Below, in pieces: positions 12,871-53,800 of a stretch of 64,000 bases of DNA; the first letter of the stretch is position 1, and every line of letters begins with the position of its first letter. The stretch covers positions 18,975,170-19,039,169 of the forward strand of contig OZ038467.1 in the NCBI GenBank assembly GCA_964036295.1, written 5' to 3'. Source of the stretch: Plumapathes pennacea. Lineage: Eukaryota > Cnidaria > Anthozoa > Antipatharia > Myriopathidae. The position numbers and the translations under genes are program-made. The notes below the pieces were generated by a model, which saw only the letters and a program-made list of their open reading frames with translations, was not told the DNA's origin and did no database searches.

Positions 12871-15800
12871 TGTATGTATTTTTTTTTTTTATTTCTCTGT
12901 TAATGTTATTTGATTTGTCAGTCAATATGCCTATGCAATATAAGCCTCTGGCTTTGGCTATTAATTTCAAATATGTAAAAATCATAAAACAATAAAGGCA
13001 AATTATTATTATTATAGAGAGATGCGTTTAACTGTACTTTCTTTGGTTGCGGGCTAGAGTAGTCTCCAGGAAGACTGCTGTTGGTGACTGAAGTGTCGAC
13101 TCCCTGAGTGGATGTCAAGTGAAGAGATTTCGTCAGATGATGGCATTTATAGCCGTTTTCACATGAATGTCGAAAGTAATCGTGTGATTGCTTTGGTTTT
13201 GCGTTTGCTACGCTTTCCGATTGGTCCAAACAAGTTTTGCAACATTCTTGGCCAATCAAGAGCAAAAGCAAAACCTGGTTGCGATACTCTCACCCAGCTG
13301 ATTGGTTAGTAAAACAACTCGCATTTACTTGGTTTTGGTTTTGGTTGTACTAGAACGTTTGGACGTGTTTTTTGCTTTGGTTTTGGTTTTCGACAGTCAT
13401 CCGAAAAGCGCCGAAAGATGTCTCTGGTAGTTGACGTGATTGGTTTGTTTTTTCGTGATCGATTGGTCGAGAAGACTTGGGAGTGTTTCGTTATTGGAGA
13501 TCTGTTGTTCTTTCGATCCGTCTATTAATCATTCAGCTGCGTTTGATGCCGTCTATCAGTCTAGTCCAGAATTTCTTCGACTAAAAGTCGCCTAAAGCTG
13601 CTTCAATCCTGGCTTTCAATTGGCTAAACTGTACAAGTAGTGTACAGTGTCCAATTGTCCTCATCTGGGGACTTTTATGACTTTAACCAGCGCCAATGGA
13701 GCAAACCCCACCCATCCCCCCTAAACTCCATTTTAAGGTGACAAAACACTACTGAGGGGGGTGGTCGCCACCAAAAATTAGTATTCAAAATGAGAATAAA
13801 TGGTCGCAGTACACTACTTGTACACAGGGGAGAGCGTACCTCGGCCAGAGGAGTCAGCGGTCGGTCCAGTCCCTGAACTCGGTGTTGTTCCATTGCCCCA
13901 TGTCCAAGAGAAATCACCGAGTCGAGACTCCTGCCAGTTGCAAAAATCCTGGTCGAAGTTACACTTGACTGAAACGCAGCGAGAACTGATAGTTTAATGA
14001 GCTGAGCAAAGGAATCAAAAGTCAAGTTCTCCTAACTGTAGGATATATTTCTGGTGAGAAACTGAAGGAGAAATTTGAAGTTGATCACTCTTGGGAGTGA
14101 AAGATTTGAGTGATTAACTTCGATTTTCTCCTTCAGTTTCTCACCAGAAATATATCATATAGTAAGGAGAACTTGGCTTTTGATACCTTGCTCAGAAGAT
14201 AGCTGATTAAACTATCAATTCTCACAACATCACTCATACAATTTCCTTTTAAAGGTTAGGAGAATCTGCGTTTTGAACTTGGGAGTTAAGAAACAGCGCC
14301 GCGAGTAAATGTTCTCGTCGAGATCTTCACGTTTTTAGGTTTCGTTTCGTTTCGTTTTGTTTGAGAGTTCAGGAGTTGTTTTTTTTTTTCTGCTCTATGT
14401 TTGTCAGTGAAACGTTTACAATATCAAACGCACAGACCTTTTTTCGCGGCGTCGGAGCCTTTGGTAGCAAGTGAACAGCAGTCGCCATCCGTGACCAGCA
14501 AGTCGTCGATTGCAATGCGTCCCTGATTAACCAAACCTGACGAAACGCCTTCAATAATGAGCTGTAAGCAAAGGAAAAAAATACCAATGTTAAATTACAA
14601 ACCGCAACAACACTGCAGCAGACGCACATATGCCGCACGTATATACGTATGTGGAGCGCTTTTCGGATGACTGCCAAAAACCAAAACCAAAGCAATCACA
14701 GAGCCAATCAATGAAGCGAGCCAAAGCACTTCCGACCTATTAGAAGTGCGAACAAAAACTCGACCAAAACCAAGTAATTGCGACTGGTTTTGCGGACCAA
14801 TCAGCAGCGCTAGAACGCTACTGTCACTTGCTTCCTTGCGTGGGAATATCGCAAATGTTGCTTTTGTTCAAGAATGTTAGGACCAATCGGAAAGCGTAGC
14901 GAACGCAAACCAAAGCAATCACACGACTCCTTTCGACAGTCATCCGAAAATGGCTCTATGTATGTATGTACGTATGTATGTATAATCGAACCCCGCTAAG
15001 TCTCACGGTACATGAAAAAAAGTTCAAAATAGCGGGGTTTCGAAGTAACCAAGCTACAATTCTGGCCAAAAGTTGTGGGACACTTAGCCTTTTATGTAAA
15101 AATTATGACACTTTCCCTCTTCCCGCCCCCCTTCCCTCCTACAATGTTGACTGAGTGTGCTCAAAGTGCACTCCCTTTATGCAACATTGTATGGGGGGGG
15201 GGGGGGGGGGGGAGGGCTACCTTTCGGAAAAAGAGCCGCTTTCGTTATTTAAAAGAGAGTAATGTTAAAAAATAGCATTTTTCAGAGTGTCCCACATACT
15301 TTTGGCCAGGATTGTAGCATCAAATTAAAAGAGTTTGTATTTGTATTGTTTATTTGAGTAAGGGCTGATCCACAGCTGTATGTAAGCACGTTAAGACAAA
15401 CTTCCAAGCTTTCACAACAGCATATGAAGATACAGAAGATGGGACACTGCCGAGCAATATTACGTCATCGACTAATAAATCAGTACGAGTTCAATTAAAA
15501 TTCAATATTTCCAGCTGTACTCTGATGTGTTCTGTTGTTTGTCCATAAAAGTTGACCAAGTTCGAAATAACAAGGTCGAATTTAGATCAAGGAGAACATT
15601 AAAAGGAGCAGTTCGAAATAACCGAGTAAATAACGGGGACTTCGAATTAACCAAATCCGAAATAGCGGGGTTCGACATAGAGCCGTTTTCGGATGACTGT
15701 CGAAAACCAAAACCAAAGTAATCACACAGGCCAATCACAGAGACTGAGAGAAAACAGTTCAGCCAATTGGAAGCCAAAGTAATTTGCGTTTGGTCTTGCG

Positions 15801-18800
15801 TTTGGTTTTACTTTCCAATCAGCAGTGCGAGTACACGCCATCGCTTGCGTGAGAAGTGTTTGGTTTTGGTTTTGGTTTTGTCTCTGATTAGCTGAGCATG
15901 CTGAAAAACTCGTGTGGACCAATCCGAAAGCAAAGCAAACGCAAAACCAAAGCAATCGCACAATTACTTTCGACAGTCATCCGAAAACCGCTCTAATATG
16001 TACGTAATGTGTACGTGCATTTATGTGACGTTGCTGATGACGTCACTGCCATGTTCTGCTCTACCCACAGTTCATCTGTGTGTGGATACATAACCTTACC
16101 CTATAGCACTGCGAGCTTTCAGCGTTGAGTTCAACCATGTGCTCGTTCCACGTTTGTCCCTGGTTTCCTGAGATGGCCACAATCCTGTCAGGGTCCTCGG
16201 AGTGATCCGTGAGTACCTTGTACACGTTAAGTTGGCCGGCATTGTAGCCGCTCATGAAGTGAAACAGCTGAAAACAACGCGTTCCGCACATCGGTTTGCT
16301 CAGAAGCGCCGCGTGTTTTCCTTGCTTGTGTCTTGCTCCATCAAAATAGTAGTACTTCCCTCCTGCGTGAAACGAGCACGTAATCAAACAAAGAAACATG
16401 ACCAAGTTCCTGTACACAGTAAGTTGGTTATGATAGTCCGGGTTATAGTAGTCTCCAGGAAGACTGTTGTTGGTGACAGACGTTTCGACTCCCTGAGCGA
16501 AAGTCATCTTCAGAGTCAAGTGAAAGGATTCGTCAGATGGCGGTATTTCTGACGAATCCTTTCACTTGACTCCAAAGATGACTTTCGCTCAGGGAGTCGA
16601 AACGTCTGTCACCAACAACAGTCTTCCTGGAGACTACTCTAGCCCGGACGATCATAACCAACCTACTGTTCACACTCCCAGGTTCAAAACATTTGCCATG
16701 TTCCTGTATACAGTCAACTCTCTCCAAAGCGGACACTTCTCTAAAGCGGACAGCATGCAGAGTTAGTCCTTGTCGATTTTCGCTTGTTTCTCTGTAGCTG
16801 AACTCTCTCTAAGGCGGACACGGCGTCCGCCTTGAGGAGAGTTCACTTTTACCTCTACAGCATCGATCACGCGAAGTAAGGCAACACTGTCATGGATTTA
16901 TCGCGTGACAAATTTTCCTGCTTTTAAATTTCAGTGAAAGTTGTGCACAAACCCTTTCGAAAACATGTGACAAACTCTGTGTTATAGTTAGTCGATAAAT
17001 ATAGCTAGAGTTGATTATAATTGGGAGGCGCGTGTATGTCCACTATGTATGTATGTATATGTATACTAAAAGGGGGGAGGGGAGAGGGCAATGACAGTAC
17101 ATTTCACTCAGAATCTAAAGTAGAGAAACTTAGAATAGCCTATTTATTTTACTTTTTGTGGGTTTTTGTTTTCTTTCTTTGTATAATGTCCCCAATTAGA
17201 CTTAGCAATGCTAAAAGACCATCTGGCACTTCAACCCTTTCACTCCTGAACTCATAATACAAGTTCTCGCAACCATTCGTGAAGAAAATGTATGAGCAAT
17301 GTGGTGAGAATTAATAATCCAATCAGCACTCTTCCTAGCAAATTATCAAACATCAAGTTCTCCACACTGTTTGATATATATCTCTGGTGAGGGACAAAGG
17401 AGAATATTGAAGCTGATCGAACCTGAACCACAACCACCAACTGCACGGTGCCGCCATCTTGGATTCAAAGCGAGGCTAACCTGACACGAAATTCGCCAGA
17501 CATAAAGCAAGAGAGTTTTCTATCACTGTGAAGTACCAGGGAGTCCTAAGATAGTATGCACATATGTTTCATTTGGGGAGTTACGTGCACAAATTTCCAA
17601 GGTAACTTTCTCAATTATGCTAGGACAGCCTCGTTTTGAAGCTTGTTCCAGTTTCCGTGCAAAGAACTCATCCTGTACGCAAACGCATTCAAAATATAGT
17701 TCTGTTTAGTGCTAGTTTTCCATTGTTATCAAAGAAAACCCACTTACCGACTTTTCCCCCATGATCCTTCTTGGGCTGCACACGTGGTCGATAGCTGGAG
17801 AGCTTCCAGTCCAGAGCGTCGCTCAATTTATCGTTTTCCCATCCACACGGACCAAGGTCGAAAGAGCAGCTCCCTGCATGAAGAGAGTTTAATGAAGCCA
17901 GGGTTTATTAATAGTAAAGACTTTCAAAAACCAAGAGATTAAAATATATCACTTGCAATGGCCAAGTTGAATGAGACCAAACAAAGCCGAACCTGATAAG
18001 AACTATCGTATACAGGAAGACTTTACAGAGGTTAAAGGGGCCTTCTCAGCCTTTTCAATGTTTTTTTTTTTTTACATCTGGAAAATGCAAGGCTGAATTT
18101 GGTTCCCAACACGAAGAACGTAATTAATCAAAAGAAAAATAGGTTAGTAGCACTTTTAGATCAAAAGAATCTAATCTTCTCCTCAAACGAGTGGGATGGA
18201 AGTGGATTGCTATTCGTCTTTCGACTTTCGGGGGCTCCAAAAATGGCGGAACCAAGGATTTCGGCGCGCAAAGGACTGTGGTTGAGAGGGCCCCTTTAGG
18301 ATTGCCGTATTCCGAAGTCCGCAAAGTCACACGTCAGGTCTGGCATATTTATGCTATGTTTTTGCGGGGAGGGGAGGGGCGCTTATTCAATTTTCCCTGG
18401 TCATTTATTTTTGCAATGCGTAACATTTGCCCGTAAACAACAACATAACGTTAGTTAACGAAACACAACCAAGCCGACTCGACCAACCATAGACCGACAT
18501 AACGGACCAATCACTTCTACAACCAGAGACATATATACCGCCATCTGACGAATACTTTTCACTTGACTCTGAAGATGACTTCCGCTCAGGTAGTCGAAAC
18601 GTCAGTCACCAACAACAGTCTTTCTGGAGACTACTCTAACCCGGACGATCACAACCAACCTACTGTTCACACTCCTGGGTTCAAACCATTTGCCAACATA
18701 ACGTTAGTATTACTGTACAGAGCCATTCGTATAGTTCTAATAGCGACACACTTAAAGTCATGTAACGTCGATTTCGATTTCCTATAGTGTTAATTTACCG

Positions 18801-34050: not shown

Positions 34051-35979
34051 CTGAGAATAAGAAACGTACTGGCTTTAGATTTACAAGGGTTCACGTTATC
34101 ATTATCACTGCCATAACTGCCAAGGTCACTATGATCGTTAACGTCAGCACAATCACAAATCACCATCAACACCAGTATATACACGCATCAAGAGTTCCAG
34201 CTTTTGGTTGGATCGCACTGCATTCTGGATAGGCTTGGCTCAGAAAAGTGAGCATCAACTCCACAATATCCGCCATTTTGTACTTAACGCTTGGAGCTCA
34301 GTCAACTTCTATCCGTTATAAAACCTACACATCTACCAAGCTCCAAACTTGAAATGCAAAATGGCGGATATTGTAGGAAGTTGATGCTAACACTTTTTAG
34401 CTAAACCTACCCAGAATACAGTGCGACCCAACCAAAAGTCGGAACTCTTGATGTGTATATTGGCAGTGTAAACCCATAGATTACTACGTGATGGATAAAA
34501 TATGAGCGGTCGATCTTTATGGTCATTTACAATGGCGAGCCGCCTGCTCCGTACTTCTGAAATGAAACAGTGACTGGAATGTACGTCATTGTTCTGTGCA
34601 GTGAACAAATCTTTATAAAAAGTTATGCATACTAATCAGTACGTGGCAAATGGTTTGAACCCAGGAGTGTGAACAGTGGGTTGGTTGTGATCGTCCGGGT
34701 TAGAGTAGTCTCCAGGAAGACTGTTGTTGTGACTGACGTTTCGACTCCTTGAGCGGAAGTCATCTTCAGAGTCAAGTGAGTTGATCAGAGTTATTTCAGG
34801 GTAAACTTCAGGAAGTCGAAACGTCAGTCACCAACAACAGTCTTCCTAGAAACCACTCTAACCCGGACGATCACAACCAACCTACTCATTAGTGCGGCAA
34901 CAAATCTTTAAGAAAAGTTAAAATACTGATTCATCAGATTTTTATTGGCATTTACAAAGTGTGCATGTGACTCAAATGCTCAGCCCGAATTGGTTTGCAC
35001 ACTTATAAATCACTGATGAATTTTACAAGCAAGCATACACACAGTAAGCACTAGATCACACCTACCCAGTACGAGTCGCCTGCTTTGATCGAAACTCTCG
35101 CCCTCCTCCACCTGTTGGTATGTGAACCACTCCTGGTCCACAGCAGTGTGGGCCTGGGATCTACGCCCATGCGCTGTTGATAGATGTTAAGCGAGCCCAT
35201 GCCCCCGCCGTACATGTGGTAATAGAAGTACAAGCAGCGCTCGGCACCAGACCCCTGTATCTTTAGCACGGCATTGTCCCCCGTTTTCCGTGGAGATGAG
35301 GCTTCAATAAACGCGTACTGTCCTGAAGGAAGAAAAAGAACGACTTGCTTATGATCGCAGGGGAACTTTTCTTTCAATATACAGTGGAACCTTCCATAAC
35401 CGACCGCCCTTCGTTCGTCTTTAAGTGGTCGCTTACAAGAATTTCTCGCCATGGGAGGCCTAAGTGAGATCCAGCTTTGAGCCACAACCAGTGTGAAATA
35501 ATGCAGTTTTAGTGAGTGAATAGCATCTTGGGTCGATTTTTTAAACAAAGTCTAACTTAGACCTTGTTTATTGCTAAATTGAAGTTTAAACGGACGCCGT
35601 AAAACAGGGTTAGCCAACCGTTGAATTGCATTTTTAGAACATGGATCGGAGTCGGTTTATAAAGACGACGTTTCGCCGTTGTCCGTTAAGCAAGGCTATT
35701 GTTTAAATCATGTTTAGACCAGGACTTTCTTAACTGTGGTCTAGAGCTTGTTTAGGAAATCGGCCCATGAAGTTTTAAGAAAGCAACCTTGTGTCCTGTT
35801 GCACGTTACATTACAGATGTCAGTGTTTTGTTCGGTCCAGTTTCTGCAAGGAAGTTGGTCCTTGCTCAGGAAATTGCTCTTTGAGAGCACAGAGCGGTCG
35901 CTTACCGGAGGTACAAAACAATTAAAAAATAATAAAATTAAAAATAAATAAAAAATAAAATAAAATAAATAAAAAAATG

Positions 35980-47100: not shown

Positions 47101-50100
47101 GTCCCGGATGTAGTTTCGTATGGATTTTACGCACGGTATATTTTCCAGTAAAACACTCGTGTCTATATAATAAACGCCTTTACTTCATACCAAGTGTAGA
47201 GAATCTGGATCCGTGTTATATATTCACCTGGCTCTCCAACTAGCTCCAGCTCATGGTCAGCGCGGGTCCCTTGAGTGTCATTTACGGCCTCCCCTGAGCA
47301 GGAGCCATTTTGAAACGTGATGTCATCAATGGCAATGTCTCCTTGATAGGTTCTGCCTACCCTTCCCACAAACATGACCTGTGGATAAAGGTGGGTTCAT
47401 CATCATTTACTAGAAATACAATAATCGCAGATACCCCCTCACTCTGCTATTGATGGGACTTTTACTTTGGTAACTCCCAACAAGAGTAGCCTTTGTTTTA
47501 CCGAAATGTTGACTCAATTTTTTCTTCGAACTCAAGTGCTACACGCAAACGAAGGAGAAAAAGAATGGTGTGTGTTATACTTTTGTGTTGAAAAAAGAAT
47601 CGATTGCGTGACGAAGTACGTATTTCCCACGGTTGGCACGTCAAATTAATTCATACAGTCTGCCAAGCACGTTCTCAAAATTTAATACTCAAAGTTTGAA
47701 GTTGGTCGGCCGTCGTAGTACGAGAAAGAAGGAACACTGATTTCCAATTTTGAATTCATAGGCAGTACAATTAAATAGGCTTCCTGTGCGATTTGTTTTT
47801 ACTCTGGACTGCATGTAACCAGGCTCAGGCATGCATATTTAATAGGCTCGAATTGTTTTGTATGTGAACCCACTCAAAACAACAAGATTTCTCCCAGAAT
47901 CAAAGCAAAACTTGAACAGTTTACTTCAAATCATACACGGGCTTCAGACCCAGTAATACTTCTAAGGGCTTGTGAACGATTCTCGCTGCAATCACCGCGT
48001 GTCAGATTACAGAAAAATAAGACATCTGACTAAATCATTCAAGACTCCAAGTTCCGATTGCTCTGAGCGAATACGGTAGCCGAAACTGGCGACAGAAGCG
48101 TAGTAAAACATCGAGGGAAAATGATCAGCATACAGATTTTAATAAATTCTTGAAGTGATCGAGTTACAAGCTATACGGGATAGAATATATTTGTCACGGT
48201 GATTGTTCGATTTTCACTGACTAACCTTTGTTGCTTGTCCTTTCTAAATAAGTATGAGTTTAACACAAAACGGCGTCTGAAGCTCCCGATTTGCTTTCAA
48301 GCGCTGTTCCCTTTGCGGAGCCGTTTCTTTGGCACGCTTCCGTTCATGGTGCTGTCGGTTATAACATGTTTGTCGTCTTTTCTCTTGACGGATTTGGCGC
48401 TGTTCGATTGTTTCACGATTTCGCCTTGCCCGTGCCTGTTTCCTTCTCTTTTGAAGACGAGCTTCGCGAGACTGTTGTGTTTCAAGTTTTCCAGTTTTCC
48501 ATTTTCGTGAACACAGCTACGATATACTGCTTCGTTCAATCTAATTTCTCTTATTGCGAGTAAAACTACAGGGCCACACGTGATCGATCCGGCCTTTGTT
48601 ATTGGTTCTGCAGCGACGCGATAGGAACTGGGGACGAGGTCGCACGACAGACTGACAGACTGACAGACGAACATTAGATTTCGAGATGGCGACACGCTTG
48701 GAGTCTCCGATAAGGCGATAATACTACTGCATTAGCGTCGTGAGTATTTCCTTCACTTCGTTCGGGGATAAACGAGCTGTGGACGAAGAAATTTTTGAGA
48801 GCGGATTTAAAAAAAAAAAACGTTTTCAAACAAAAACGGATACTGGGGACTGAGCCTGCAGCGCACCTGTGTGAACATTTTCGAAAACTTTTTGAAAAAT
48901 GCTAAACGCAGAACGGAAAACAAAGGTTGCATTTGCAAACGAAAACAAATTAGTTTCGGCGACAAAAATAAATAAATAAATAAATAAACAATCGAAAACG
49001 CTATTATGTGAACGAAGAAACCGCGTTTGAAAACGAAAACGGATAACTGTGAACGGAAAAACGAATCGAAAACGCTATCGTGTGGACAAAGAAATTTTTG
49101 AGAACGGAGAAAAAAACGTTTTCAAACAAAAACGGATACGAGTGTACGGAAAACGGACACGAGAAGACGCGGGGCGTACCTGATAGTTCCTTCCGTACAC
49201 GGTGACATTTGCGGAGTGCCAGCCTTTCCCTTGGTTGGTGTATTTTCCCCACAGGAAATTTCCTGTGTCTGACTTGCTCTGTCTGAGGAACACCTGCAGA
49301 TCGGCCACATCGATTCCGTACATGTAGTGAAAAAATCGCATGCACTTTGTGCCTGAAAACGGACCACCAACAAGACGAGCTTGTTCACCACGCCTTCGTG
49401 GGTACGACGCCTCCATATACACGTAGAAACCTAGAAAAAGTCAAATGTGGAGCTCTCTATACTACTTCCGTATACATGTAGTAACCTAAAAGAAGTCAAA
49501 TGTAAAGATCTCTTGATGGTCACAGAGCAATAATGTAGCAACTATAATGCTTGTATATACATATAGTACCCTGGAAGAAGTCAAATATAAAGCTCTTTTG
49601 ATGGAGCAGAGCAAAAACTTAGCAACTACAATGCTTGTGGGAAGTGGTTTGAACCCAGGAGTGTCAAAAGTAAGTTGGTTGTGATCGTCCGGGTTAGAGC
49701 AGTCTCCAGAAAGACTGTTGTTGGTGACTGACGTTTCAACTCCCTGAGCGGAAGTCATCTTCAGAGTCATGTGAAAGGATTCGTCAGATGGCGGTATTTA
49801 TGTCTCTGGTCGTTGAAGTGATTCGTCCGTTAGTTTTTCGTCCTATGCTTGGTCGAGTTGGCTCGGTTGTGTTTCGTTATTGGTCAGTTGATGTTCTGTT
49901 GTCCTGTCGATTTGTCTATTGTTCTGCCATATATCGCCATCTGACGAATCCTTTCAATTGACTCTGAAGATGACTTCCGCTCAAGGAGTCGAAATGTCAG
50001 TCACCAACAACAGTCTTCCTGGAGACTATTCGAACCCGGACGATCACAGCCAACCTACTATACTGCTCGTATATAAAAACAAAGAACACAACGAGCAGAG

Positions 50101-50847
50101 AAGATTAAAACAAGAGAGGATCGAAAGGATAAGGCACAAAAACGTTGAAACTGCGCCCACAACAATTTCCGACATATTCCTTTTTAATTAGTATATACCA
50201 CAAAAGTGAACAGTGTTTTCGGCGCTTTGATTGGCTCCTCGATCTCGGAAAAGCAAGTATTATTCACCGCCCGACGGCTTCTGGTGAAACAGTTTCGCGC
50301 GCAAACCCGATTTTTGCGGCCATTTTTGTCAGAAAATAATAGCTATTTGGGAGCTGGCTGGTACAAACAGTTCCTCCATCTTGCCCTAAAGAAGCTGCGA
50401 TTAATGTTGCGCGTGATGCTGACCAACTTAAATGCAAGTAAGAGATCACACGGACCAGTTTGCCTTTGAACAGATCACACTTAAAAATAAATTTAACGAG
50501 TTGGGGTTGCCCCCCCCCCCCCCCCCGGACTTACCGGTGCCAGAGTGGTCAGTAAGGGGGCCCGTGCCGCTGCTGGAAGTCTTGCCTGTGTGACGAGTCC
50601 AGTCAAAGTCATCTCCATCCTCGTTTCCCCAAAGACACGTGCCCAACTCGAAATCACAATCTCCAGGCTCTGTCACTAGAAAACCAAGCGATGCGTTGAA
50701 GTAAAGATCATAATATTGTAAAGTTAGATAACACTGACGAACACAAATAGTGTAGTGTAGTGCAGTGTAGAGTAGCGTTGTGTTGTGTTGTGTTGTGTTG
50801 TGTTGTGTAATGTTTAGTGTAATCAGAATACTGCACAATGTCCTGGT

Positions 50848-50885
<38 letters not shown>

Positions 50886-53800
50886 TGAGCCCAAGTAATA
50901 GCAGCCATGGACAGCTGTTTCGGCCTTATTAGGCCTCGTCAGCATGGCATAGCTATACTTGGGCTCGGGTTCCCACAATGTTTAGTGTAGCTGCTACGAA
51001 GCAGGTTTTAGGGGGACTCGCTTTTGGACTTGGTTGACTTCTTTATTCTTGGATGACGGCTGGAGCAGCTCTTTTACACTGAACTCTCGGGCTCCAAGTC
51101 ACTCTGAACTCTTCACTACAACCTAGCGATTATATGCTCAGGGAGCACGTACAGTGGTTACAAACTTCCTTTCGGGTAAACAACTAAATTAGATAGCAAA
51201 ACCACGATGACATCAGAACGAAAAAGGTGTAAAGAATTCCGCGACATAGGTGACTGCCAAGGCCCCGAACGTGCCTGTGCATCACGATGCCGTGCAAATA
51301 CTGAGCAGCTTGCTCAAAACGTGCAGATAAAGCGGACCGACAGGCACGTTCGTAACGAACGGGCACACGTAAATGCTGCGCTCACCTCATTTATGAACCA
51401 TGCTCCTAAAGGGCTATTGTAAGCCCATTTGGAAGGTCAAGTCTGAGCTCTTCCGTTTGCAAATACAAGTTCGTTACAGGATAGCCAAAATATTATTCTT
51501 GATAATAAATTTCCAAATTGTTCCGAATTGTCCCTTGACATAGCGTAGTGTCATGGTAATATAGTGCATGTGGTTTAGGATAGCGTAGTATACAACTCTC
51601 TCTAAGCAGACGCTCTCTAAGGCGGACACCTCTCTAATGCGGACAATAAATTTGGTCCCTGCCGAATTTCACTTGTTTCTCTGCCACTGAACTCTAAGGC
51701 GGACATCGGACATTTTTATCAAACATTTCATTCAAAAAACTTCAAAGAGAACACCCGACGAATTTTATAACAGAGACCCGAAATTAGCGCAATCTGATGA
51801 CAAGTACGTCTCTGGTTTTAATAAAATATACCAGACCTGACAGTAGGAAGTAATCAATGCATATCGTCACTTTTCCTGTCAGTTATACACTTCACAGGCA
51901 AAATGACACACTTGCGCAGCCTTGTACTGGAGTCACATGCATTCTTCTTTCGCTTTTTCGCGTCTTGGTTTCGATCAATGACAGTTTTAATCTTCTCGTT
52001 TTATTTGTCCATGCAACCTTGCTATCTAGGCCACAGCCTCTGAAACACCTTGAACCTTGTACTTACAAAGTTTTTTTCGTAATGAATAAAGGGGGATGAA
52101 CCCTGACTCCAAGTAAAGTAACAAGCGACACAAACAATTTTGTTATTAAGGTTAATTCACAAGTGTCTAAAGCGCCTGTTTCAAAACGAGGACTAAAGCG
52201 AAACTTTTCGAATGACAATTTGTCTATTAAATTTTCATGAAAATAAACTAGGCCTCGGTTTGAAACAGAGGCGACAGGCATCTCGGGAATGAACTTTTGA
52301 CTAACTTACCCTCTGAACAATTCTTGCCAGTATATCCACCAACACAAGTACACTGGTAATCGTTGACCAGGTCCATACAGGTTCCACTGTTCTGACACGG
52401 GTAGGGAGAACAATCGTCGATATCTTTCGAGAGAAAGGCAACAATAAAATAAATGTCTTCAGCCGTCAGTAAACGAATTGTAACCTAAAGGAGATTGAAT
52501 TAGTAAAGTACTGTGAAACACCTTGAACTTAGTATAAGTAAACTCGTTAAGTTCCCCATATTCAAAATTGTCTAACTTACTCTCTGAACAATTCTTTCCA
52601 GTATATCCATCAACACAAGTACACTGGTAATCGTTGACCAGGTCCACACAGGTGCCACTGTTCTGACACGGGTAGGGAGAACAATCGTCGATATCTTTCG
52701 AGAGAAATGCAACAATAAAATAAATGTCTTCAGCCGTCAGTAAACGAATTGTAACCTAAAGGAGATTGAATTAGTAAAGTACTGTGAAACACCTTGAACT
52801 TAGTATAAGTAAACTCGTTATATTCCCCATATCCAGAACTGTCTAACTTACTCTCAGAACAATTCTTTCCAGTATATCCATCAACACAAGTACACTGGTA
52901 ATCGTTGACCAGGTCTACACAGGTGCCATTGTTCAGACACGGGTCGGGAGAGCAATCGTCGATATCTTTCGAGAGAAATGCAACAATAAAATAAATGTCT
53001 TCAGCCGTCAGTAAACGAATTGTAACCTAAAGGAGATTGAATTAGTAAAGTACTGTGAAACACCTTGAACTTAGTATAAGTAAACTCGTTATATTCCCCA
53101 TATCCAGAACTGTCTAACTTACTCTCTGAACAATTCTTTGCAGTATATCCATCAACACAAGTACACTGGTAATCGTTGACCAGGTCCATACAGGTTCCAC
53201 TGTTCTGACACGGGTAGGGAGAACAATCGTCGATATCTTTCGAGAGAAATGCAACAATAAAATAAATGTCTTCAGCCGTCAGTAAACGAATTGTAACCTA
53301 AAGGAGATTGAATTAGTAAAGTACTGTGAAACACCTTGAACTTAGTATAAGTAAACTCGTTATATTCCCCATATCCAGAACTGTCTAACTTACTCTCTGA
53401 ACAATCCTTGCCAGTATATCCATCAACACAAGTACACTGGTAATCGTTGACCAGGTCCACACAGATGCCATTGTTCAGACACGGGTCGGGAGAACAATTG
53501 TCGATATCTTTCGAGAGAAATGCAACAATAAAATAAATGTCTTCAGCCGTCAGTAAACGAATTGTAACCTAAAGGAGATTGAATTAGTAAAGTACTGTGA
53601 AACACCTTGAACTTAGTATAAGTAAACTCGTTATATTCCCCATATTCAAAATTGTCTAACTTACTCTCTGAACAATCCTTGCCAGTATATCCATCAACAC
53701 AAGTACACTGGTAATCGTTGACCAGGTCCACACAGGTGCCATTGTTCTGACACTGGTCGGGAGAACAATCGTTGATGTCTTTCGAGACAAAAGTAAAAGT

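What the first reader, a model, noticed from the sequence alone, without database searches (positions are those of the whole stretch)
50887..50966. Complete type I hammerhead ribozyme in sense orientation in the intron between EGF and MAM blocks
Seen: CUGACGA core, GGCC/GGCC stem II, GAA, ACAG/CUGU stem III, GUC cleavage triplet, a 5-bp inner and 11-bp outer stem I separated by an internal loop. Known: type I hammerheads with minimal stem III occur in Penelope-like elements and retrozymes and often act as dimers; some vertebrate introns also carry hammerheads. Inference: cleavage in the gene 1 pre-mRNA would sever the signal/EGF part from the MAM part, or affect splicing of this intron. Only one copy was found nearby, so it may be a lone retroelement relic.
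Basis: partly seen in the sequence, partly recalled or inferred. Interest (0 to 1): 0.88.

Follow-up and report, generated by a model that had tools for sequence, protein, structure and literature searches.

The report
Intronic hammerhead retrozyme, likely Penelope-mobilised
The self-cutting RNA motif in this intron is real, and it is one of many copies of a tiny known kind of jumping element; the marks its relatives left on insertion point to Penelope-like elements as the machinery that moves them.

Summary
The hammerhead is real: Rfam type I, 34.0 bits, minus strand 50904-50948, predicted cut between 50910 and 50909. It lies sense to a minus-strand EGF/MAM gene, in a 1,634-nt intron, 234 nt before the 3' splice site. 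It is not a lone relic but one truncated, internally deleted copy (50822-50976, 13-bp target duplication) of a ~253-bp repeat with 44 listed matches in the genome, some in tandem: a metazoan non-LTR retrozyme. Whether it cleaves or affects splicing is untested. The stronger result lies in the relatives. In 90 loci, 113 of 122 arms end at one of two points 38 nt apart; all 32 two-armed inserts are head to head, and 25 of the 26 with both ends classified carry one end of each type. A Penelope-like element (PLE) of the same genome shows the same geometry in 9 of 9 inverted pairs examined, three of them in this window, with a ~30-nt offset. This resembles the "tail" signature reported for PLEs (PMC11167929, PMC3846280). 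A 2020 review said metazoan retrozymes show no motif that would reveal their helper; these fossils point to PLEs.

The parts
50887..50966 (-). Type I hammerhead ribozyme with full stem I (80 nt); RF00163 core match 50904-50948
   Evidence: 34.0 bits, E 1e-6; 9 other places in the genome are 80/80 identical; strict motif 1 in window, 0 in 60 simulated windows
50909..50910 (-). Predicted self-cleavage site, after C17 of GUC
   Evidence: sequence; cleavage itself is inferred
50822..50976 (-). The retrozyme insertion: 5'-truncated single arm, ends at site A; lacks unit positions about 39-100
50809..50821 (.). Target site duplication, left copy AATGTTTAGTGTA
50977..50989 (.). Target site duplication, right copy AATGTTTAGTGTA
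50852..50882 (-). Run of 31 T in RNA sense (A on the + strand), where other units have a shorter or interrupted T-run; the next ~61 unit bases are missing here
50820..50850 (-). Remnant of the unit's RT-start region (unit 101-131), ending at site A
   Evidence: 31 bases, 96.8% identical
50676..52309 (-). Host intron, phase 1, GTAAGT ... TTCTAG, holding the insertion in sense
   Evidence: read from sequence; no transcript data
50535..50675 (-). MAM exon downstream of the ribozyme
   Evidence: PF00629 25.4 bits, just under the cut-off 26.4; positions 1-40 of the domain; next MAM part within 49075-49440, 52 bits
52310..52425 (-). EGF exon upstream of the ribozyme (5' limit approximate)
   Evidence: PF00008, 35.9 bits
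49638..50059 (.). Head-to-head pair of Penelope-like element ends (one site A, one about A+30) in the next intron of the same gene; no exact target duplication found

Best explanation
The motif is the hammerhead of one degraded, single-arm copy of a metazoan non-LTR retrozyme that inserted into an intron in sense. Shown: the family has many copies, in ~253-bp units with one type I hammerhead each, single, in tandem and in head-to-head pairs, about half with an exact target duplication of mostly 9-15 bp; its inserts end at two points 38 nt apart downstream of the cleavage site, one of each in nearly every fully classified inverted pair; a Penelope-like element of the same genome has the same kind of end geometry. 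Inferred: retrozyme RNA is copied in trans by the PLE reverse transcriptase/endonuclease, which opens both strands of an A+T-rich target and starts copying inside the RNA at site A on one target end and site B on the other, so the retrozyme behaves like a PLE pseudo-LTR without an ORF. Many templates were not cut by the hammerhead, since 37 of 51 arms found without using the hammerhead run past the cleavage site. In the window copy a single hammerhead could cut the intron but cannot by itself release a unit or a circle; I expect no strong effect on the host gene.
For: Hammerhead. Copies: 44 matches, 10 of them 80/80 identical, the window's own included (40 of 221 candidates scored); tandem units of about 253 bp, 47% G+C. 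Ends (90 unique loci): 122 arms, 70 at site A (unit 124-143), 43 at site B (160-184), 9 elsewhere; these windows cover 45 of 253 positions. They were drawn after seeing the ends; with the narrower windows first used (126-138, 161-179) 108 of 124 arms fall inside. The 51 hammerhead-chosen loci, whose query does not touch the 3' ends, give 57 of 68 arms. A second real unit as reference gives 68 A, 41 B, 10 other of 119 (arms scoring under 40 left out). 32 of 32 two-armed inserts are head to head; of 26 with both ends classified 25 are A+B and 1 is A+A, against 47% unlike expected for independent arms; 20 of the 25 share an exact target duplication of 8 bp or more. Such duplications: 48 of 90 loci; 1% of 2000 swapped-flank pairs. 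Same-genome PLE: RT plus GIY-YIG ORF; 9 of 9 inverted pairs examined have one arm near A (+0 to +7) and one reaching about A+30, after which the flanks differ; exact duplications of 12-15 bp at five of the nine pairs and at the single insert W18k. Literature: a purified anole PLE extends both target strands and starts at two adjacent internal RNA sites, the stretch between them being the 30-40-bp 'tail' (PMC11167929); [quoted passage not shown] 37 of 51 arms cross the cleavage site.
Against: No RNA, protein or cleavage data. The retrozyme offset (38 nt) differs from the PLE offset (about 30 nt), and no sequence similarity beyond chance between the unit and the PLE copy L118 was found. 42 of 90 loci gave no exact target duplication of 8 bp; nor did W49k, W34k and L121 among the PLE pairs. 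In vitro the anole PLE showed no difference of start site between the two strands (PMC11167929), so the strict one-A-one-B rule is not explained by that paper. L083 has two arms tail to tail 188 bp apart, left out of the pair count by its 120-bp limit. 38 loci were chosen by the tail or upstream part of the unit, which favours arms that reach site A. Three arms counted in pairs are under 40 nt (L061, L087, L113). A circular template is not proven: laps within an array differ by 3.6% against 4.9% between arrays. 16 of the 37 crossing arms cross by only 6-13 nt. The minimum-energy fold of the motif is not the hammerhead. In loci not chosen by the hammerhead, 9 of 19 complete hammerhead spans keep the core pattern, so many copies are probably dead. 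The helper could be another PLE family than the one sampled.
Confidence: 0.77

Rival explanations
1. The retrozyme is moved by a LINE; the inverted pairs are ordinary LINE twin priming.
For: Target duplications of 9-15 bp and 5' truncation also fit LINEs (recalled). PMC7229834 names LINEs as possible helpers. No LINE of this genome was examined here.
Against: Two fixed start points, one of each in 25 of 26 classified pairs, and arms that overlap on the RNA in several pairs, differ from LINE twin priming, where the second start is variable and the two parts do not overlap (recalled). The same-genome PLE shows the same geometry in 9 of 9 pairs.
Confidence: 0.1
2. The inverted pairs do not come from priming on both target strands but from self-priming of the copy on an antisense template, as proposed for rotifer PLEs.
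For: Arkhipova and colleagues infer self-priming on an antisense template from palindromes at inverted junctions (PMC3846280 passages).
Against: 20 of 25 A+B pairs have a target duplication around the whole pair and the two outer ends are of different type; a purified PLE extends both target strands (PMC11167929). Junction palindromes were not analysed here.
Confidence: 0.12
3. The intronic ribozyme has been co-opted: its cleavage regulates splicing or processing of the EGF/MAM transcript.
For: Sense orientation, full core, 234 nt before a 3' splice site. Intronic self-cleaving ribozymes with proposed roles exist, e.g. Cpeb3 (PMC10919898, start of abstract in a listing only).
Against: It lies in a retroelement insert that still has an exact 13-bp duplication; the same 80 nt occurs unchanged at 9 other places; no conservation could be tested.
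Confidence: 0.06
4. The arrays are satellite DNA spread by recombination, with no RNA step.
For: Tandem units of similar length; type I hammerheads were first found in newt satellite DNA (PMC7229834).
Against: Dispersed single and partial copies with target duplications (48 of 90 against 1% in the control) and fixed ends.
Confidence: 0.03
5. The mobilised template is linear, uncleaved multimeric RNA, not circular RNA.
For: Units within an array differ nearly as much as units of different arrays (3.6% against 4.9%). The anole PLE used unprocessed RNA as its main substrate in vitro (PMC11167929).
Against: Several arms are close to whole numbers of units with both ends near site A, as expected from laps of a circle; metazoan retrozymes are abundant as circles in the species tested (PMC7229834).
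Confidence: 0.4

Closest known systems
Metazoan non-LTR retrozymes (Cervera and de la Pena 2020, PMC7229834)
   Same: Units of 170-400 bp (here ~253, 47% G+C), one type I hammerhead each, dimers and trimers, non-coding, target duplications longer than 4 bp; the paper reports them in corals, jellyfish and sea anemones.
   Different: Sequence not compared with published coral retrozymes (their supplement could not be read). Head-to-head A/B pairs and two fixed 3' ends are not mentioned in the parts read (1-4 of 6).
Penelope-like elements, Penelope/Poseidon group (PMC11167929, PMC3846280)
   Same: Two internal RT start points, 'tail' on one arm of head-to-head pairs, target duplications of similar length (12-15 bp in this genome's PLE, 8-10 bp in the rotifer passages), hammerhead upstream of the start points.
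   Different: No ORF in the retrozyme; canonical rather than minimal hammerhead; offset 38 nt (about 30 in this genome's PLE, 30-40-bp tail in the paper); no sequence similarity found to L118.
Schistosome and newt type I hammerheads (kinship recalled; model RF00163)
   Same: Rfam type I model matched over its whole length; short stem III.
   Different: Different carrier element; loop 2 UAAUAA in the window copy.

Membership tests
Hammerhead ribozyme type I (RF00163) | Conserved core and three helices, open-ended stem I | tested here: met
   (34.0 bits against a cut-off of 34, full length; not listed by the whole-window scan)
Hammerhead ribozyme type I (RF00163) | Self-cleavage at the GUC site | not testable with these tools
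   needs in vitro transcription
Hammerhead ribozyme type I (RF00163) | Loop 1 - loop 2 tertiary contacts | not tested
   an internal loop in stem I is possible; contacts were not modelled
Metazoan non-LTR retrozyme | Short (170-400 bp) repeats with type I hammerheads, from dimers to multimers | tested here: met
   for the family; the window copy itself is a truncated single arm
Metazoan non-LTR retrozyme | G+C below 50%, target duplications longer than 4 bp when present | tested here: met
   unit 47% G+C; duplications of 8 bp or more at 48 of 90 loci
Metazoan non-LTR retrozyme | No LTR, primer binding site or polypurine tract | not tested
   no dedicated search was made
Metazoan non-LTR retrozyme | Expressed as linear and circular RNA of unit length | not testable with these tools
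   no RNA data
Penelope-like element (as mobiliser) | Two fixed internal RT starts 30-40 nt apart, tail on one arm of inverted pairs | tested here: met
   38 nt, 25 of 26 classified pairs; seen on genomic ends, not on the enzyme
Penelope-like element (as member) | ORF with RT and GIY-YIG endonuclease | tested here: not met
   unit of about 253 bp, too short for such an ORF; so it is not itself a PLE

The most novel reading that the evidence does not exclude
Animal retrozymes are satellites of Penelope-like elements: a dimeric PLE enzyme docks on one retrozyme RNA at two fixed sites 38 nt apart, each protomer extending one end of a double-nicked target, often for more than one lap round a circular RNA. 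The retrozyme would then be a PLE pseudo-LTR reduced to its ribozyme and its RT-start region.
Probability: 0.5. Interest if true: 0.78.

Novelty: new member of a known kind. Interest (0 to 1): 0.6.

Why it matters
The ribozyme itself is a known kind. What matters is the helper. A 2020 review states that metazoan retrozyme repeats show no conserved motif from which the autonomous partner could be deduced (PMC7761336 passages); it and PMC7229834 propose PLEs from shared features and co-occurrence. The insertion ends seen here give a countable fingerprint that points to PLEs and can be tested in other retrozyme-bearing genomes and with a purified PLE protein. Searches of the held library for retrozyme with Penelope-like and target-primed reverse transcription (0 papers), for retrozyme with pLTR (2 papers: passages of PMC11722881 read, PMC8969392 seen only in the listing) and from 2021 on (3 papers: PMC9695139 and PMC12029980 seen only in the listing) showed no report of this signature in retrozymes in what I read; unread papers and subscription journals may hold one.

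Tried and rejected
Lone relic: rejected. GIY-YIG hit L117 as the PLE: rejected; its 1,413-aa ORF matches helicase-type AAA and Viral_helicase1 models and GIY-YIG but no RT model, and no Rfam match reached E = 1. Sequence kinship between the unit and PLE copy L118: nothing beyond chance. Circularity from within-array identity: inconclusive. Rfam on L118: 16 matches, all to microRNA families and all below their cut-offs; its minimal hammerhead (CUGAAGA ... GAAACGUC at the ATG) was seen by eye, not by a model. Species: not determined; COX1 on contig C24 is split with about 0.85 kb between the pieces, which with recalled knowledge suggests an anthozoan cnidarian.

Rows dropped before counting: L064-L068 (another element); L092 (same locus as L037) and L107 (duplicate of L106) but not. 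Arms more than 120 bp from the main arm were left out (L083, one of L043). The A and B windows were chosen after the ends were seen and were widened. 5 of the 10 PLE loci were chosen because one search listed an inverted partner there, not by their ends; single PLE arms may have a partner beyond the fetched stretch. The reference stops at A+30, so one search was run to see that the flanks differ from there on: they do, within a few bases, in the 10 arms matched (the W16k arm was not matched by that pattern).

Mended on the second look: the core-integrity count (now 9 of 19, replacing a looser count), the self-priming rival added, and confidence lowered by 0.01 for it.

Full report
1. Observation. 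The sequence at 50887-50966 holds a type I hammerhead on the minus strand. Rfam's type I model matches 50904-50948 over its full length with 34.0 bits, E = 1e-6 for 601 bases; this equals the curated threshold, and the whole-window gathering scan listed nothing. A strict core-plus-stems pattern occurs once in the window and not at all in 60 simulated windows. The predicted cut is between 50910 and 50909. Geometry needs two corrections: stem I can be 6 bp, a small internal loop, 4 bp, a one-base bulge and 11 bp; stem III as a monomer would be 2 bp closed by AGCU. The hammerhead fold (-36.3 kcal/mol) is not the minimum-energy fold (-43.6), which pairs part of the core; loop-loop contacts are not in that energy model.

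2. Host gene. On the minus strand an EGF exon ends at 52310 (PF00008) and a MAM exon spans 50675-50535 (PF00629 25.4 bits, slightly under its cut-off for this part-domain; further MAM parts downstream). The intron between them, 52309-50676, has GTAAGT and TTCTAG ends in phase 1. The ribozyme is therefore sense, 234 nt before the 3' splice site. There are no transcript data.

3. Many copies. The 80-nt motif has 44 matches in the 290-Mb genome, 10 of them identical over 80 nt, the window's own included; only 40 of 221 candidates were scored, so this is a lower bound. RF00163 gives 37 hits, 34 over the cut-off, from 74 scored candidates; the window's own copy is not among them. Fetched copies show units of about 253 bp, singly, in dimers and trimers, and in inverted pairs. 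The unit has one hammerhead, a T-run of variable length and a non-coding rest, 47% G+C. This is the anatomy of metazoan non-LTR retrozymes (PMC7229834, parts 1-4 of 6 read).

4. The window copy. It is a single arm from 50976 to 50822 with an exact 13-bp duplication of AATGTTTAGTGTA on both sides. It keeps the hammerhead complete but has lost unit positions about 39-100; a 31-base T-run stands there. One hammerhead can cut but cannot release a unit.

5. Insertion ends. I numbered the unit from the base after the cleavage site. In 90 unique loci (51 found through the hammerhead, 38 through other parts of the unit, and the window), 122 arms were mapped: 70 end in RNA sense at 124-143 (site A, median 132), 43 at 160-184 (site B, median 170), 9 elsewhere. 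The windows were drawn after seeing the ends; the narrower ones used first hold 108 of 124 arms, and 57 of 68 arms in the hammerhead-chosen set, whose query does not reach the 3' ends. Another real unit as reference gives 68, 41 and 10 of 119. Of the 90 loci 58 have one arm (41 A, 14 B, 3 other) and 32 have two, all 32 head to head; one further locus, L083, has a tail-to-tail partner 188 bp away that the 120-bp limit left out. Of the 26 two-armed loci with both ends classified, 25 are A plus B and one is A plus A; independent arms would give 47% unlike. 20 of the 25 carry an exact target duplication of at least 8 bp around the whole pair, so both arms probably arrived together. Such duplications occur at 48 of 90 loci, commonest lengths 13 (13 loci) and 14 (10), 71% A+T against 58% in the fetched loci, and in 1% of 2000 swapped-flank pairs. 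The 5' ends vary. In the 38 loci found through other unit parts, 37 of 51 arms cross the cleavage site, 1 stops at it and 13 are shorter; 16 stop at unit 240-249, just past the site. Those 37 came from templates that had not been cut there, or were joined there again.

6. The Penelope match. Locus L118 holds a PLE copy with RVT_1 and GIY-YIG domains, itself an inverted pair. The query from its end had 1,584 first-look candidates, of which 40 were scored. Among 15 PLE inserts examined (L118, ten fetched loci and four in the window), all 9 inverted pairs have one arm at A (+0 to +7) and the other reaching about A+30; of the 6 single arms 4 end at A (+1 to +4) and 2 at about A+30. Beyond A+30 the flanks differ from locus to locus. 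Exact target duplications of 12-15 bp were found at five of the nine pairs and one single insert, one pair (W16k) had 9 bp, and three pairs gave none of 8 bp or more. Frangieh et al. found that a purified anole PLE cleaves and extends both DNA strands and starts reverse transcription at two adjacent sites inside its RNA, the distance corresponding to the 30-40-bp 'tail' of genomic copies; they saw no difference in start site between the strands (PMC11167929, parts 1-3 of 4 read). Arkhipova and colleagues describe the 31-bp tail, optional on one of two inverted pLTRs, and head-to-head as the most frequent inverted form, which they ascribe to self-priming on an antisense template (PMC3846280, passages). 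The retrozyme inserts carry this kind of signature. A 2020 review says that metazoan retrozymes show no motif revealing their helper and proposes PLEs from shared hammerheads and co-occurrence (PMC7761336, passages).

7. Mechanism, with grades. Shown from sequence: the hammerhead, the family, two preferred ends, unlike ends in pairs, target duplications, similar geometry in the PLE. Inferred: PLE enzyme acting in trans; internal starts at A and B. Undecided: circle or linear multimer; laps in one array differ by 155 of 4,296 positions (3.6%) against a mean 4.9% between arrays. Activity: 9 of 19 complete hammerhead spans in loci not chosen by the hammerhead keep the core pattern. Effect on the host gene: no evidence; a copy that cuts slowly in an intron may be tolerated.

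8. Verdict. A new member of a known kind, with fossil evidence that the kind is moved by Penelope-like elements.

Noticed in passing
window 16417-16702, 18456-18695, 34641-34891, 49638-50059: Four Penelope-like element inserts; three are head-to-head pairs with one end at A and one at about A+30. The one at 18456-18695 is identical to L118 over 240 bp and has a 15-bp target duplication, so it looks recent.
   Followed up: yes
L064-L068 (hammerhead near the middle of each locus): A different repeated element, at least 2.4 kb and mostly 98-99% identical among the five copies compared, carries a type I hammerhead (38.5 bits, 11 such hits) with CAAAUA loop 2; a second GUC-CAUGG stretch lies upstream, so a type III-like pairing is also possible. 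The element was not identified.
   Followed up: partly
L117:377-4618: A 1,413-aa ORF with helicase-like and GIY-YIG domains; GIY-YIG ORFs of 1,359-1,443 aa are listed at four further places. Not a PLE; identity open.
   Followed up: partly
L077, L080, L082-L084, L086, L087, L090, L091, L093, L095, L097, L100, L101, L105: 5' ends of 16 arms at these 15 loci pile up 6-13 nt past the ribozyme cleavage site, next to stem II, as if reverse transcriptase stalled at the folded, uncut hammerhead.
   Followed up: partly
window 52459-53568 and beyond to about 54564: Row of EGF exons in very similar units of about 271 bp including intron sequence (ORF list), suggesting recent tandem exon duplication.
   Followed up: no
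window 13050-13561: More diverged relative (73-76%) of the same Penelope-like element.
   Followed up: no
G000 contig C24:4629-6872: COX1 in two pieces about 0.85 kb apart, with TGA and one TAA inside the read frames: mitochondrial contig, probably an intron in COX1.
   Followed up: no
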